DNA from: Streptomyces xanthii
GTDB taxonomy: Bacteria > Actinomycetota > Actinomycetes > Streptomycetales > Streptomycetaceae
Reading direction: 5' to 3'
Length of the DNA stretch: 64,000 bases
Assembly: GCF_014621695.1 (NCBI RefSeq)
Contig: NZ_CP061281.1
Span: forward strand, 4,030,001 to 4,094,000
The first letter of the stretch is position 1. The number at the start of each line of letters is the position of its first letter. The notes beneath the pieces are model-generated. The model made no database searches. It saw only the letters and a list, made by a program, of their open reading frames with translations, and was not told where the DNA came from. Both the position numbers and the translations under genes were made by a program. This document shows positions 4,736 to 59,752 of this stretch, in pieces.

Positions 4736-4750
4736 CGCGACCACCGGCCG

Positions 4751-4889
4751 GTGGGGGCTGATCGCGCAGTTCCCCGCGCCCCTGAAATGCACGCCCTTCG
4801 GGCGGCATTTCCCCGATGGGCCGCGCTCCTTGAGATGGCGCACGAAGTGCGCATCTCAGGGGCGCGGGGAACTGCGCGAGAAGCCCCAC
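4751..4889. repeat. Palindromic repeat element, copy A (intergenic)
   Basis: Perfect 24-bp outer arms at 4762-4785 and 4856-4879, further extended by GTGGGG-CT / AG-CCCCAC flanks. Between them are two smaller hairpins: one around a TTCG loop (about 4785-4813) and one around GAA (about 4832-4857). The folded element is cloverleaf-like. It fills the gap between the convergent phoX-like and FUSC genes and may act as a terminator. Related copies are at 14040, 29978, 33411 and 52625. Confidence 0.8.
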
Positions 4890-13905: not shown

Positions 13906-14039
13906 GAGGTACTCCCGTATGGGGCGGTTTTGGGGGGTTTTGCTCGTGGTTACTTTGGCAGTGCGGGTTCTTTTGGGCGCGGGTACACGCCGTGCGTGGG
14001 GGCGGGAACGGGTGTGTTGGCGGCTGCGGGTACGTCGTG

Positions 14040-14212
14040 GCTGGTCGCGCAGTTCCCCGCGCCCCTGAAGGCATGCGGCTTCGCCGCGCCTTCCCCGAAA
14101 ACAGGCGCCCGCACCTGCGTCGGGGAAATGCGACCCGAAGGGTCTGCATTTCAGGGGCGCGGGGCTGTGTCCATCAGCGGCTCCGCCGCGGGGCGCGACC
14201 AGCCCCCACCGG
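14040..14212. repeat. Palindromic repeat element, copy B (intergenic)
   Basis: The 334-bp gap between parA and the DUF4389 gene contains this composite. Its left arm (about 14046-14070) reads like that of copy A, followed by hairpin segments around GGCTTCGCC and ACCCGAAGGGT, a right half-arm (about 14152-14166) and a second palindrome ending near 14212. The rest of the gap, 13906-14039, is the AT-richer promoter region of parA with G/T runs on the plus strand and nothing else recognised. Confidence 0.75.
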
Positions 14213-14239
14213 GGCGCACCCGGTCGCGAAGGGCCGGAG

Positions 14240-28889: not shown

Positions 28890-29530
28890 GCCTGGATCTC
28901 CTCCTCCGTCGCGATAGCGTTCAGGGCGGCGGCCGTCATGGCGCTGCCGCCGCGCCGGCCGCGCACGATCAGGTACTCGAGGCCGAGCTCGTTCACCGCG
29001 AGCGCGTCCTTCGACTCGGCGGCGCCGACGAAACCGACCGGGATGCCCAGCACGGCCGCGGGGCGCGGCGCGTCGTCCTTCGCCAGCATCTCCAGGAGGT
29101 GGAACAGGGCGGTCGGCGCGTTGCCGATCGCCACGACCGCGCCGTCCAGCCGGTCCCGCCACAGTTCGAGCGCGGCGGCGCTGCGCGTCGTGCCCAGGTC
29201 GGCGGCGAGCGCCGGGACGCGCGGGTCGCGCAGGGTGCACAGCACCTCGTTGTCGGCGGGCAGACGCTTGCGGGTGACGCCGCTCGCGACCATGTGCGCG
29301 TCGCAGAGGATCGGCGCGCCGGCCCGCAGCGCGGCGCGGGCCTTCGCCACGACGCCGGCCGAGTGGCCGATGTCCTGTACGAGATCCACCTGGCCGCAGG
29401 CGTGGATCATGCGGACCGCGACCTGCGCGACGTCGGCGGGCAGCGCGGCGAGGCCGGCCGCGGCCTCCGCGCGGATGGTGGCAAAGGACTCGCGGTAGAT
29501 CGCCGCGCCGTCCTTCTCGTAGTCATACAC
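28886..29530 (-). CDS. cobH: Precorrin-8X methylmutase
   Basis: Moves the C11 methyl to C12 to give hydrogenobyrinate. 214 residues, the normal length. The catalytic His is in [15 protein letters not shown] at residue 43, as in characterised CobH. Also conserved are [17 protein letters not shown] and the C-terminal [15 protein letters not shown]. Its start overlaps the end of cobG by 8 bp and its stop overlaps the cobIJ start by 4 bp, so cobG-cobH-cobIJ form one translationally coupled unit. Confidence 0.94.
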
Positions 29531-30869
29531 GGGGTTCGGCTCTTTCCTCGGTCGTTCGGTACGTGCCGTCGGGCAGCGCGGTTACGTCCAGGTACGGGCC
29601 GGCCGGGTGACCGCAGCGGCGCTCGCAGCCGGACCAGTAGGTGGGGAGGGTGGGGTGGCGGGGCTCGGCGTCCCGGCGTACGTCGGTACGGGACTTGGCG
29701 CAGCCCGGGGTGCCGATGCACGCGCCGAGCCTCGCCTCGGGCGACGTGGGGTCCGTGATCAGGCCGGCCGCCGCCAGTGCGGGGCGGTCGGCGGGCCCGG
29801 CGCCGGGGACGACGACGGTCCGCCAGGGGGTCATCCGCAGTTCCCTCTGCGGGAGGCGCCAGGCGAGGTCGGTGAGGGCCGCCCATTGGTCCGGGGTGAA
29901 CGATCCGAAGGGGGCCGTCGCGATGAGGGGGGCAGCGCCGTTGGTGGTGGTTGGTTCGTCGCCGGGTGACGCGTGCGTCGTGGCTGGTCGCGCAGTTCCC
30001 CGCGCCCCTGAGGTCGCACTTCGTGCGCCCCAGGAGCGGCGGGTCACCTCATCAAGCCCCTCGGGGTCCCCCCGGACGAAGTCTGGGGGAGATTGAGGAG
30101 CGGGGGCCGGGGCGGAGCCCCCGGGGGTGCTCATGCGCAGCCCCGCCGCCATCAAGTCCCGGGATATCAACTCGGCCAAGGGCGCGCCCAGTTCGGCGAC
30201 CCGCCAGACCCGACGTCCCGTCACTTCCGAAGCAGCCGCCAGGAAGGACTCGGCCGCGATCACCGCCGCCCGCGCCGCGTCCTCGTACCGCACGACGAAC
30301 TCCGCGTCCGCGACGACCAGTTGGGCCGAGCCGCCGTCGGGGAGGCCGCGCAGCAGCACATCCGGCCCGAGCGAGGAGACGTCCCCGCGACCGTCGTCCA
30401 GCGCGAAGAGGAAACGGCCCGACAGACCCGGCGTCACCGAGCTGGCGCACAGCGCGGAATCAAGCCCGGTCAGCCAGGGCCGCACGTCCACGAAGCCCGC
30501 GCCGTCGAGCCCCGACAGCGGCGAAGCCACCACGTTGCGGACCCGCTCGTGGAGCGGCGACGGCAGCAGCCCGGCCTCGCCGAGCACCTCCGCCAACTCC
30601 CCGCCGCACCCGTCCCGCAACCCCCGCAGCTGCACGTTCCCGCGCGAGGTGAGGTGCAGCACCCCGTCCCCGAGCCGCCCCGCCGCGTCCGCGAGCGCCC
30701 GCGCCCGCACCGCGGTGAGCACCCCGCCCGGCACCCGGACCCGCGCGAGGAATCCGTCGTCGGCGGCGTGCAGCCGCAGCGCGCCGGGGCAGGCGTCACC
30801 CCGGGACGTACCGGACGTACCGGGACCGAGGGGTATGGGGGCGGGGGACATGCCGGGGAGCATACCCAT
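29523..30869 (-). CDS. cobG: Precorrin-3B synthase (with an in-frame repeat insertion)
   Basis: Oxygen-dependent ring-contraction monooxygenase with a 4Fe-4S cluster, of the sulfite/nitrite reductase fold. 448 residues from ATG 30869 (ATGs at 30863 and 30851 also possible). [14 protein letters not shown] lies in the N-terminal half; the cluster ligands are [10 protein letters not shown] and [11 protein letters not shown] near the C-terminus. Between [19 protein letters not shown] and [16 protein letters not shown] is a roughly 55-residue, low-complexity segment that is a translation of a palindromic repeat element (29978-30130). It is in frame and appears to be tolerated as a surface loop. 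Presence of this enzyme points to the aerobic route. Confidence 0.9.
29978..30130. repeat. Palindromic repeat element, copy C, inside cobG
   Basis: From 29990 the plus strand reads like the left arm of copy A (CGCGCAGTTCCCCGCGCCCC), followed by a CACTTCGTGCG hairpin and a partial right arm. A second palindrome, around CCCCTCGGGG, TCTGGGGGA and GGGGCGGAGCCCC, then runs to 30130. It occupies a whole number of codons of cobG. Confidence 0.75.
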
Positions 30870-30940: not shown

Positions 30941-31090
30941 GCGGTCCCGTCCGGGCCGTCACATCGCCAGCGACGGCGACAGGGGAGGAAGCCCGGTGCG
31001 ATTCCGGCGCGGTCCCGCCACTGTGAGCCCCCACCGGGGGCGAGCCAGGAACTCCCGCCGTCAGTAACCACCCGGGGCGCGGACACCCCG
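30941..31090 (+). ncRNA. Cobalamin riboswitch upstream of cobN
   Basis: Has the hallmarks of the AdoCbl aptamer: GGAAGCCCGGTGCGATTCC then GGCGCGGTCCCGCCACTGT, and the B12 box AGCCAGGAACTC (31043-31054). A GGGG/CCCC hairpin follows at about 31072-31089, next to the AGGAAGG at 31091-31097 that serves cobN, so ligand binding probably blocks translation initiation. Confidence 0.92.
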
Positions 31091-47929: not shown

Positions 47930-48430
47930 GGGGGTGCGCCGGGTTGATTTCCGGGGGCCGGGAGGCGGGGACGGCCCCGGGATCGGGGGACGGGGTGGCC
48001 TGGGGCTGGGGCGGCGGTCCGGGACCGGGCGGTGCGACGGCCTGGGGTGGGGAGGCGGGGCGGGCTGGGGCTGGAAGGCGGGACAACCCGGGACCGGGAG
48101 ACAGGGCGGCCTGGGGCTGGTCGGTGTGATGGCCTGGGCCGGGAGAAGGGGCGGCAGAGGCCGGGAGGCGGGGACGCCCCGGGATCGGGAGGCGGGGCGG
48201 CCTGGGGCTGAGGGGAGTGGACGGCCCGGGACCGGGAGGCAGGGCGGCCTCGGGCTGAGGGGAGTGGACGGCTCGAGGCCGGGAGGCAGGACAGTCCGGG
48301 ACCGGGAGAACCGAGGCGGCCTCGGGCTGGGGGGCGGGGCGGCCCGGGGCCGGGCGGTGCGACGGTCCGGGACCGGGCGGTGGGGTGCTCTGGGGCTGGG
48401 GGTGGGACGGCTGGGACCGGGCGGCGCCGC
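47930..48430. repeat. G-rich minisatellite
   Basis: About 500 bp of imperfect repeats built from GGGACCGGGAGGC, GGCCTGGGGCTG and similar units; one 47-bp period is clear (CTGAGGGGAGTGGACGGC at 48208 and 48255). The plus strand is almost pyrimidine-poor with many GGGG runs, so it can form quadruplexes. It fills the space between the TauD promoter and the TetR gene. No coding sequence was supported there. Confidence 0.85.
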
Positions 48431-52513: not shown

Positions 52514-52624
52514 CGGGGCCTCTTCTCGATCGGCGCGTTCTTCTCTCGGGCTGCTTCCAGGGGACGGCCCGCCCCTCGCGACGGCGACACGGGTTCCTCC
52601 GGACGGGTGAGCCTCTCGTCGCCG

Positions 52625-52885
52625 GCTGCGGGCGGGTGGGGGCTGGTCGCGCCCCGCGGCGGAGCCGCTGATGGACACAGCCCCGCGCCCCTGAAAGGCT
52701 GCGGCTTCGCCGCGCCTTCCCCCGACAACAGGCGCCCCGCACCTTGATCGGGGAAATGCGACCCGAAGGGTCTGCATTTCAGGGGCGCGGGCCGGTGGGG
52801 CGCGACCGGCGGGCCCCCGGGGCGCACGGAGTGCGCCTTCAGGGGCGCGGGGAACTGCGCGACCAGCCCCCACCGGCCCGCACCC
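52625..52885. repeat. Palindromic repeat element, copy E (composite, intergenic)
   Basis: The 472-bp gap between the protease and YihY genes holds a composite. Segments: GGTGGGGGCTGGTCGCGCCC at about 52627, a hairpin around CGGCGGAGCCGC, then a block nearly identical to copy B (around ACCCGAAGGGTCTGCATTTC), then a right arm AGGGGCGCGGGGAACTGCGC (near 52839) with CCAGCCCCC. The same arm as copy A ends it. 52514-52624 holds the protease leader, and 52886-52985 nothing recognised. Confidence 0.75.
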
Positions 52886-52985
52886 CGCGACGAGAGGCTC
52901 ACCCCGCAGACGCTCCCCGCGCGCGAACCCCGGCCCACCCCGCGATACTGCGGCACATGGACGACCCGCCCCCCGCGCGGCGCGC

Positions 52986-58198: not shown

Positions 58199-59752
58199 TC
58201 ACAGGGACTCGGTCACGTCCCGGGACGCCGTACGCCGGAGGCCCCCGCCCTCCACCAGCGCCCCGCCCACCACCAGCCCCACCGCCAGCGCCGTGACGAT
58301 CGTGACGAGCTTCATCAGGTCCTGGAAGCCCTCGATGACGTAGCCGCCGGCCAGCGTCGTCAGGCCGCGCATGCCGAGCGAGCCGACGGTCAGGGTGAAG
58401 AAGCCCGGGAGCAGCAGGATCAGCCGGGGCGGGCGGCCCGGGCGGCGGGCGATCAGCGTGGCCGCCGCCGCCAGGACGGCGGCGGCGACGAACGTACCGC
58501 CCGTCTCCCCGACCAGCTTCGTGAACGCCGACTGCACGCCCACGGTGACGTACACGAGCACCAGCAGCGGCACGAAGAACCGCACAGGGATCGCGAACGC
58601 GAGCACCGTGCCCGCCGTGAATACGATCCACGCCAGGAACAGCGCCCACCGGGGCAGATCCGCGTCCGCCGCCACGTCGAACAGAGCGCGGGTGTCGGTG
58701 CCGGTCACGACGACGCCGAGCAGCACCCCGAGATACAGCTGGACCAGCAGGAACACCGAGTAGACGAGCCGGATCGCACCCGTCGTGATCAGGCCCGCCG
58801 ACAGCTCGGCGGTGGCCGCGCTCAGATAGTCGCCGGGCACGAAGTAGAACAGCGCCGGGAGCATCAGCAGCACCGGACCGCCGCGCGCCGGATCGTCCGC
58901 GAACACCTCGATCGTGACGACGGACACGGCGACCGACACCACCAGCGGCAGGATCCGTTCCAGCACCGGCACTCGGTCCGCCGCGACCGCGAGCCCCGCG
59001 GCCAGCGCGCCCAGCACGGCCGTGGCGCCGATCTCGTACCAGGTCGGCTGCATCAGCGGGGAGAACCCCAGCGAGAACAGCACGATGCCGAGGAACTTCA
59101 GCCACCACGGGTACGGCGCCGGCGCCGCCACGATCGCCGCCAGCCGCCGGTCCGCCTCCGCGAGCCCGATCCGGCCGCCCCGCACCTTGGCGAGCAGCGG
59201 CTTCAACGCGGCGACCTGATCGAGCCGGAACACCTCCGGGACACCGTGCACGGTGACGGTCCGGGTCCGGCCGTCCGCCGAGGTCACCGCCACCGCGGCC
59301 GCCTCCGGCACCAGCAGCAGCGTCGCGGAACCGCCGTACGCGCGGGCACTGTCCGCGACCGCCCGTTCCACGAGGTGCGCGCCCTCACCGGAGGTACGCA
59401 GCAGAAGCCCCGTCAGCCGGGACAGGAACACGACCAGCTCGTCGAGCCCGGCAGGGGCGCCGGGCACCGCAGGGGCGCCGAGCCCCGCCGGATCGCCGGA
59501 CACCGCGGGGGCGCCGGGCTCCGCGGGGGCGCCGGGCTCCGCCGGATCGCCGGTCCCCGCGGGGGCGCCGGGCTCCGCAGGGGCGCCGAGCCCCGCCGGA
59601 TCGCCGGGCTCCGCAGGGGCGCCGGGCTGCACCGGACCGGCGAGCCCCGCCGCACCATCAGGACCGGGGCCGGGGCCGGGGCCGGGGCCGGGGCCGGCAC
59701 CGGGGCCCATGCCCCCGTCCCGCTCCGCCCCCGCGGCCTCGCGTCGCTCCAC
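58199..59752 (-). CDS. Threonine/serine exporter family protein (ThrE-like) with repetitive N-terminus
   Basis: 517 residues from GTG 59752, which has GAGGAG at six bases. The first 105 or so residues are disordered: a (GP)n run and ten hexapeptides of the GAPAEP/GDPAGL type. A ThrE domain follows: LDELVVFLSRLTGLLLRTSG, VHGVPEVFRLDQVAALKPLL, then about ten helices (GIVLFSLGFSPLM, PALFYFVPGDYLSAATAEL near the middle, and others). Likely exports threonine or serine, or a small peptide. It is divergent from the permease operon. Confidence 0.85.
   Translation of the reverse strand: MERREAAGAERDGGMGPGAGPGPGPGPGPGPDGAAGLAGPVQPGAPAEPGDPAGLGAPAEPGAPAGTGDPAEPGAPAEPGAPAVSGDPAGLGAPAVPGAPAGLDELVVFLSRLTGLLLRTSGEGAHLVERAVADSARAYGGSATLLLVPEAAAVAVTSADGRTRTVTVHGVPEVFRLDQVAALKPLLAKVRGGRIGLAEADRRLAAIVAAPAPYPWWLKFLGIVLFSLGFSPLMQPTWYEIGATAVLGALAAGLAVAADRVPVLERILPLVVSVAVSVVTIEVFADDPARGGPVLLMLPALFYFVPGDYLSAATAELSAGLITTGAIRLVYSVFLLVQLYLGVLLGVVVTGTDTRALFDVAADADLPRWALFLAWIVFTAGTVLAFAIPVRFFVPLLVLVYVTVGVQSAFTKLVGETGGTFVAAAVLAAAATLIARRPGRPPRLILLLPGFFTLTVGSLGMRGLTTLAGGYVIEGFQDLMKLVTIVTALAVGLVVGGALVEGGGLRRTASRDVTESL
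59443..59622. repeat. 18-bp minisatellite encoding ten hexapeptides
   Basis: Ten in-frame 18-bp units in the ThrE-like gene, each coding GAPA, GDPA or similar followed by two variable residues. The adjacent (GP)n stretch lies at about 59662-59705. Confidence 0.85.

What the first reader, a model, noticed from the sequence alone, without database searches (positions are those of the whole stretch)
29978..30130. Palindromic repeat inserted in frame inside cobG
A repeat that is otherwise intergenic in this window (copies A, B, E) sits inside the coding frame of precorrin-3B synthase. It adds about 50 low-complexity residues between two conserved parts of the enzyme while leaving the four cluster Cys and the frame intact. 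This resembles the 'protein-coding palindromic element' behaviour known from Rickettsia but seems unreported for streptomycetes as far as I can tell; that last point is not something I can verify here.
Basis: partly seen in the sequence, partly recalled or inferred. Interest (0 to 1): 0.75.

Follow-up and report, generated by a model that had tools for sequence, protein, structure and literature searches.

The report
Genomic repeats colonise an enzyme linker
Short repeats that normally lie between genes in Streptomyces sit in frame inside the flexible linker of a vitamin B12 enzyme, probably through several separate insertions in related species, so repetitive DNA is being turned into protein at a tolerant spot.

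Summary
CobG (window 29526-30851, minus strand) carries about 168 bp of repeat DNA in frame (29955-30122). It is two repeats joined: a B unit with an internal hairpin, then one arm of an A unit. A has 394 copies in this genome and B 23 (up to 2 mismatches). In a 2.06 Mb sample, 2 of 137 A and 1 of 10 B copies lie in called genes. The insert falls in a linker of a nitrite/sulfite-reductase-like fold and is predicted disordered. It is not unique: 5 of 7 complete CobG linkers of the immediate clade, plus one partial, hold A and/or B copies in different frames, orders and numbers. Linkers with A come from A-rich genomes; the two B-only linkers come from the two B-rich genomes. Several separate insertions are likely but not proven. 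In-frame copies also occur in other proteins of this genome and two relatives. Closest precedents: Rickettsia palindromic elements and intragenic REPs. No Streptomyces report was found in nine searches of one library. Translation, enzyme activity and the mobilising machinery are untested.

The parts
   Evidence: NIR_SIR_ferr, E 6.3e-23; nitrite/sulfite reductase fold
30037..30122 (-). B unit, in frame (residues about 244-272), a variant with an internal hairpin
30067..30090 (-). Hairpin inside the B unit, also present in the copy at G000:C1:3524675-3524746
30010..30031 (-). Hairpin-forming inner part of the A unit
   Evidence: (65-nt stretch, z -3.0)
29982..30010 (-). A core, no mismatch to the A pattern, residues 281-290
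29955..29981 (-). Outer tail of the A unit, ending like the flanks of intergenic copies, residues 291-299
4744..4885 (.). A pair in inverted orientation outside called genes (cores at 4756 minus and 4857 plus)
14022..14234 (.). A-type copy outside called genes (core at 14039 minus) with a second inverted arm
52605..52904 (.). A-type copy outside called genes with inverted arms (core at 52840 plus)

Best explanation
Two families of dispersed palindromic (REP- or MITE-like) repeats inserted into the linker that joins the two halves of CobG. The added stretch keeps the frame and has no stop in it, so it is read as an extra disordered segment of about 54 residues, while the folded halves and the Fe-S cysteines keep their sequence. 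The linker tolerates length change, so whichever repeat family is amplified in a Streptomyces lineage can land and survive there, sometimes followed by in-frame tandem duplication (units of 72 or 57 bp). Shown: sequence, frame, repeat identity, rarity in genes, absence in one clade member, differing inserts in relatives, low predicted order. Inferred: separate insertion events, translation, continued enzyme activity, and mobilisation by an unknown system.
For: The repeats are mostly non-coding: 2 of 137 A and 1 of 10 B in called genes although called genes cover 87.2%. Relatives' linkers hold differing copies: KL109B 3 B, NBC_01016 2 B, PsTaAH-137 1 B + 3 A, S. longispororuber 1 A (4 mismatches) + 1 B, window 1 B + 1 A, SID5785 (partial) at least 1 A. 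B is in frame 0 in three and frame 1 in two; A in frame 1 in three and frame 2 in one. Genome copies A/B are 394/23 (window), 523/36 (PsTaAH-137), 197/36 (longispororuber), 84/12 (SID5785), against 13/570 (KL109B) and 4/285 (NBC_01016), whose linkers hold B only. Linker B copies of the sisters KL109B and NBC_01016 differ from each other by 6-10 of 48 bases but from dispersed copies by only 1-2. Residues 245-304 have pLDDT below 50 between confident stretches. Parallel case: KL109B CobN, 91% identical to the window's, has an in-frame B copy in a loop that is shorter and without it in the window and in L010, L011, L012, L018 and L021.
Against: Of the 7 complete clade members, HmicA12 (304 A copies) has only an A-like stretch seen by eye, which does not reach the pattern at 8 mismatches, and VRA16 (138 A copies) has none. 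The A pattern rests on few, partly sister genomes: 4 of 4 A-rich against 0 of 2 A-poor among the carriers is not significant. The linker B copies of KL109B and NBC_01016 are as close to dispersed copies of the sister genome (1-2) as to those of their own (1-2), so own-genome origin is not shown. Frame 0 copies at a similar place in the window, KL109B and NBC_01016 could descend from one insertion later converted. No clear target duplication and no Y1 transposase gene. dN/dS of the CobG C part between window and SID5785 is 0.49, above all 10 control pairs (0.11-0.47) and well above 0.09 for two neighbouring genes, so constraint may be relaxed. The model is also poor around the cysteines (378-394 and 402-417 below 50).
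Confidence: 0.8

Rival explanations
1. One ancestral repeat array entered the linker before the clade split; present differences come from slippage, indels, gene conversion and loss, not from repeated insertion.
For: B in frame 0 sits at a similar place in the window, KL109B and NBC_01016; A in frame 1 is shared by the window, SID5785 and PsTaAH-137; tandem duplication is evident. The clade has 100 support.
Against: Different frames, different order (B then A, against A then B), different B subfamilies in two sister species, and no A in the A-poor genomes.
Confidence: 0.2
2. The repeats are irrelevant: the CobG linker is a variable low-complexity loop, and repeat-derived sequence is one of many neutral fillers.
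For: Linkers range from 47 to 331 residues in 56 CobGs outside the clade, and 11 of 56 are 79 or longer without A/B copies at 4 mismatches or fewer; several are simple tandem repeats.
Against: Does not explain why the filler in this clade is dispersed repeats of the families abundant in the host. It overlaps with the best explanation about the site and differs mainly in denying any meaning to the source.
Confidence: 0.35
3. CobG of this lineage is losing function, and the insert survives because the gene is decaying.
For: dN/dS 0.49 in the C part between window and SID5785 against 0.09 in two neighbouring genes; SID5785 has changes beside the cysteines.
Against: Frame open, four Cys kept, ratio below 1, and control pairs without A/B inserts reach 0.47.
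Confidence: 0.1
4. Assembly artefact: the repeat was joined wrongly inside cobG.
For: Repeats break short-read assemblies; the SID5785 contig begins inside the same A copy.
Against: Both flanks are cobG in one frame; SID5785 independently shows the same junction of A with the C part; relatives have in-frame copies; this assembly has 3 contigs.
Confidence: 0.02

Closest known systems
Rickettsia palindromic elements (RPE), protein-coding palindromes
   Same: Dispersed palindromic repeats of about 150 bp, some in frame within unrelated metabolic genes (passages of PMC10969869, and of PMC3733652).
   Different: Two families joined; several frames used; coding copies are rare in this genome, whereas nearly half of the R. 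conorii RPEs were in ORFs; here one linker carries copies in several species. No sequence comparison with RPEs was made.
Intragenic REPs of GTAG/CGTC type (PMC3733652)
   Same: Mostly intergenic, between convergent or tandem genes, inverted dimers, some encode residues inside ORFs or supply stop codons; different REPs sit at about the same site of recB in two Xanthomonas species (section 15).
   Different: Streptomyces and Actinobacteria do not occur in that text; by eye no GTAG end in the A/B consensus; no Y1 transposase gene in this genome.
MITEs with in-frame fusions, e.g. QMITE of Coxiella (PMC5896051)
   Same: Small inverted-repeat elements that can extend or enter ORFs (passages).
   Different: No clear target duplication and no parent transposon identified here.

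Membership tests
Protein-coding palindromic element (by behaviour) | Same repeat found both between genes and in frame inside unrelated ORFs | tested here: met
   cobG and an SSF symporter tail in this genome; CobN, an ABC fusion, an MFS protein and other proteins in KL109B and NBC_01016. Names other than Pfam matches are recalled.
Protein-coding palindromic element (by behaviour) | Element folds as a palindrome | tested here: met
   RNA folding: A part z -3.0, 148-nt stretch z -2.95; the B part alone only z -1.3
Rickettsia palindromic element (by sequence) | Sequence homology to RPE families | not tested
   No RPE sequence was compared
Protein-coding palindromic element (by behaviour) | Insert is translated and the host protein stays active | not testable with these tools
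   Only indirect: open frame, Cys kept, dN/dS 0.49
REP with RAYT transposase | Y1_Tnp (PF01797) gene in the genome | tested here: not met
   0 matches in the own genome; the same search rang in 5 of 14 control genomes
REP / BIME by arrangement | Many copies, inverted pairs, mostly between genes at 3' ends | tested here: met
   28 of 100 clusters are A- A+ and 1 is A+ A-; 54 of 98 placed clusters lie between convergent genes, which hold 15% of the bases of intergenic stretches of 60 bp or more
MITE | Terminal inverted repeats with target-site duplication | tested here: inconclusive
   32 inverted pairs, gaps mostly 56-88 bp, but no duplication clearly above shuffled flanks

The most novel reading that the evidence does not exclude
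The CobG linker of this Streptomyces clade is a preferred, possibly selected landing site: unrelated repeat families have repeatedly been domesticated there as modular disordered spacer and amplified in frame, so that the linker is a readable record of which repeat family is active in each lineage.
Probability: 0.2. Interest if true: 0.75.

Novelty: new variant of a known kind. Interest (0 to 1): 0.55.

Why it matters
It extends protein-coding palindromes to high-GC, large-genome actinobacteria. It adds a case in which one protein linker is filled by two unrelated repeat families in several species, in line with what is abundant in each host; the nearest precedent met in the passages read is recB of two Xanthomonas species. 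It offers a natural series (empty, one copy, tandem copies) to ask whether repeat-derived disordered segments are neutral or used, and to find what moves these abundant Streptomyces repeats.

Tried and rejected
RAYT-type mobilisation: no Y1_Tnp gene in the genome. Target duplications around 32 inverted A pairs: best 4-mer offset 8 against a shuffled mean of 5.5, longer words at chance; not taken as evidence. Selection for translatability of the element: A units have on average 4.97 of 6 frames open against 5.10 in shuffles (random intergenic 75-mers: 3.95), so openness follows from composition. Phage origin: no match in phages; 6 Streptomyces plasmid records hold pieces. Rfam: no family covers the repeats at gathering scores. 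The gene caller undercounts: it dropped the N-terminal part of KL109B cobG and with it its 3 B copies. A stricter frame test gave 1 internal case and 4 with a stop inside the element in 100 window-genome clusters, 0 and 2 of 16 in NBC_01016, and 2 and 1 of 7 in KL109B; it missed the symporter tail, the NBC_01016 ABC case and KL109B cobG. The KL109B 60 kb was chosen because it surrounds cobG, so it is no random sample. In the tree the C part of L012 and L043 was cut too early, inside or near the linker; columns with under 80% occupancy were dropped, and the tree was not rebuilt.

Full report
What is there. CobG lies at 29526-30851 on the minus strand with an open frame of 442 codons. It matches the nitrite/sulfite reductase half domain, and its model matches nitrite and sulfite reductases; the best is 1zj8 with TM by query 0.58 and rmsd 9.0. 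Window 29955-30122 is repeat DNA: a B unit (30037-30122) with an internal hairpin, then the hairpin (30010-30031), core (29982-30010) and outer tail (29955-29981) of one A unit.

The repeats. In 2.064 Mb of the same genome, cores with at most 6 mismatches number 137 (A) and 10 (B), against 0 and 0 in one Markov control. Whole-genome counts of slightly shorter patterns at up to 2 mismatches are 394 (A) and 23 (B); the reversed control pattern gave 0. Of 100 clusters, 28 are A- A+ inverted pairs and 1 is A+ A-. Of 98 placed clusters, 54 lie between convergent genes (15% of the intergenic bases counted), 40 between tandem genes (53%) and 4 between divergent genes (32%). This is REP/BIME-like. No Y1_Tnp gene and no clear target duplication were found.

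Coding copies are rare here. Called genes cover 87.2% of the sample, yet 2 of 137 A and 1 of 10 B lie in them: cobG (one A, one B) and the C-terminal tail of a sodium:solute symporter in L078. These counts are lower bounds, because the caller is simple. A stricter frame test found 1 internal case in 100 clusters, cobG, and 4 clusters where a gene ends within the element.

Relatives. 66 loci were scanned for A/B; L037 and L038 repeat the window and L010, and other duplicates between the two sources were not excluded. In a tree of conserved parts (30 of the 66, 328 columns) the window groups with L009, L010, L011, L012, L018 and L021 at 100 support; inner nodes of the clade have 58 to 99. Of these 7 complete linkers, 5 hold A/B cores at 4 mismatches or fewer: KL109B (3 B), NBC_01016 (2 B), PsTaAH-137 (1 B, 3 A), S. 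longispororuber (1 A, 1 B) and the window (1 B, 1 A). HmicA12 has only an A-like stretch seen by eye, and VRA16 has none. SID5785 is partial: its contig begins inside an A copy that matches the core without mismatch. Copies occur in different frames and orders; spacings of 24 and 19 codons show in-frame tandem duplication.

Relation to the host repertoire. A/B genome counts are: window 394/23, PsTaAH-137 523/36, HmicA12 304/19, VRA16 138/3, longispororuber 197/36, SID5785 84/12, SID14478 53/15, KL109B 13/570, NBC_01016 4/285. The two A-poor, B-rich genomes carry only B in the linker; all linkers with A come from A-rich genomes; but two A-rich genomes have no A core in the linker. Over 48 bp, KL109B linker copies differ by 1-2 from dispersed KL109B copies and by 6-10 from the NBC_01016 linker copies; NBC_01016 linker copies differ by 1 from dispersed copies of their own genome and by 6 at best from KL109B's linker. 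They are equally close (1-2) to some copies of the sister genome, so the test shows different B subfamilies in the two linkers, not strict own-genome origin. The window's B differs by 11 or more from the other sampled copies over that span, because of its internal hairpin; a similar copy exists at G000:C1:3524675.

The site. Between fixed anchors the linker has a median of 56 residues in 56 CobGs outside the clade (47 to 331); 11 of 56 are 79 or longer without A/B copies at 4 mismatches or fewer, several by simple tandem repeats. Clade values are 93 (window), 95, 103, 100, 72, 53 and 39. The model, made from 26 aligned sequences, gives residues 245-304 pLDDT below 50 between confident stretches, but it is also poor around the cysteines.

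Is the gene intact? The four Cys are kept. dN/dS of the C part between window and SID5785 is 0.49: below 1, but above all 10 control pairs (0.11-0.47, some sharing a member); two neighbouring genes give 0.09. Mild relaxation cannot be excluded.

Generality. In KL109B, CobN (91% identical to the window's) holds a B copy in a loop that is shorter in the window and in five other clade members, and a second B copy elsewhere. In 60 kb around its cobG, 4 of 12 B copies lie in called genes (three genes, two copies in CobN), and 3 further ones lie in cobG, which the caller cut short. Of 30 B loci from its first contig, 4 lie in called genes (three genes: the tails of an MFS protein and of an ABC ATPase, and a protein with a sub-threshold sacsin match hit twice). 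In 400 kb of NBC_01016, 3 of 24 B and 0 of 2 A lie in called genes: an ABC fusion with the B copy between permease and ATPase domains, and two copies in the N-terminal part of an ADP-ribosylglycohydrolase whose start is uncertain.

Known kinds. A MITE review (passages, PMC10969869) describes RPEs of about 150 bp in frame in Rickettsia genes. PMC3733652 (passages; section 15 read) describes REPs mostly between convergent or tandem genes, inside ORFs in several bacteria, and at about the same site of recB in two Xanthomonas species. PMC5896051 (passages) reports in-frame QMITE additions. Of PMC4681348 and PMC6649704 passages were seen; the first speaks of REPs only for E. coli. One original RPE paper was looked for and is not held; RPEs are known here through these texts. 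Searches for Streptomyces reports and for pieces of the repeat letters found none; of those listings only titles and starts of abstracts were seen. The finding works like RPEs; membership by sequence was not tested.

Noticed in passing
window 30985-31054 (+): Cobalamin riboswitch between cobG and the next gene, read as cobN (Rfam RF00174, 39.5 bits).
   Followed up: no
L231/L232 (KL109B contig 3, 317920-321711): CobN-like protein with two in-frame B copies in opposite orientations; the loop copy is absent from the window's protein.
   Followed up: partly
L078 11776-13563 (-): Sodium:solute symporter whose C-terminal tail holds A-type repeats in frame, the stop overlapping the next called gene.
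   Followed up: partly
L230 9438-12071 (-): Fused ABC permease-ATPase with an antisense B copy between the two domains.
   Followed up: partly
L065: CobG with a 331-residue linker rich in tandem repeats, no A/B core found.
   Followed up: no
L013, L016, L022, L023, L024, L025, L026, L029, L030, upstream of cobG: At least one B copy (4 mismatches or fewer) in cobG orientation upstream of cobG in nine other Streptomyces or actinobacterial loci.
   Followed up: no
C1_1600001 97012 (G000:C1:1697012) and similar: An antisense B supplies a TGA and a short C-terminal end to genes, much as GTAG REPs are reported to supply stop codons.
   Followed up: partly
window 59398-59703: Array of 18-bp-spaced repeats, 12 overlapping copies reported.
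   Followed up: no
window 47999-48407: G-rich degenerate repeat block with spacings near 23 and 46 bp.
   Followed up: no
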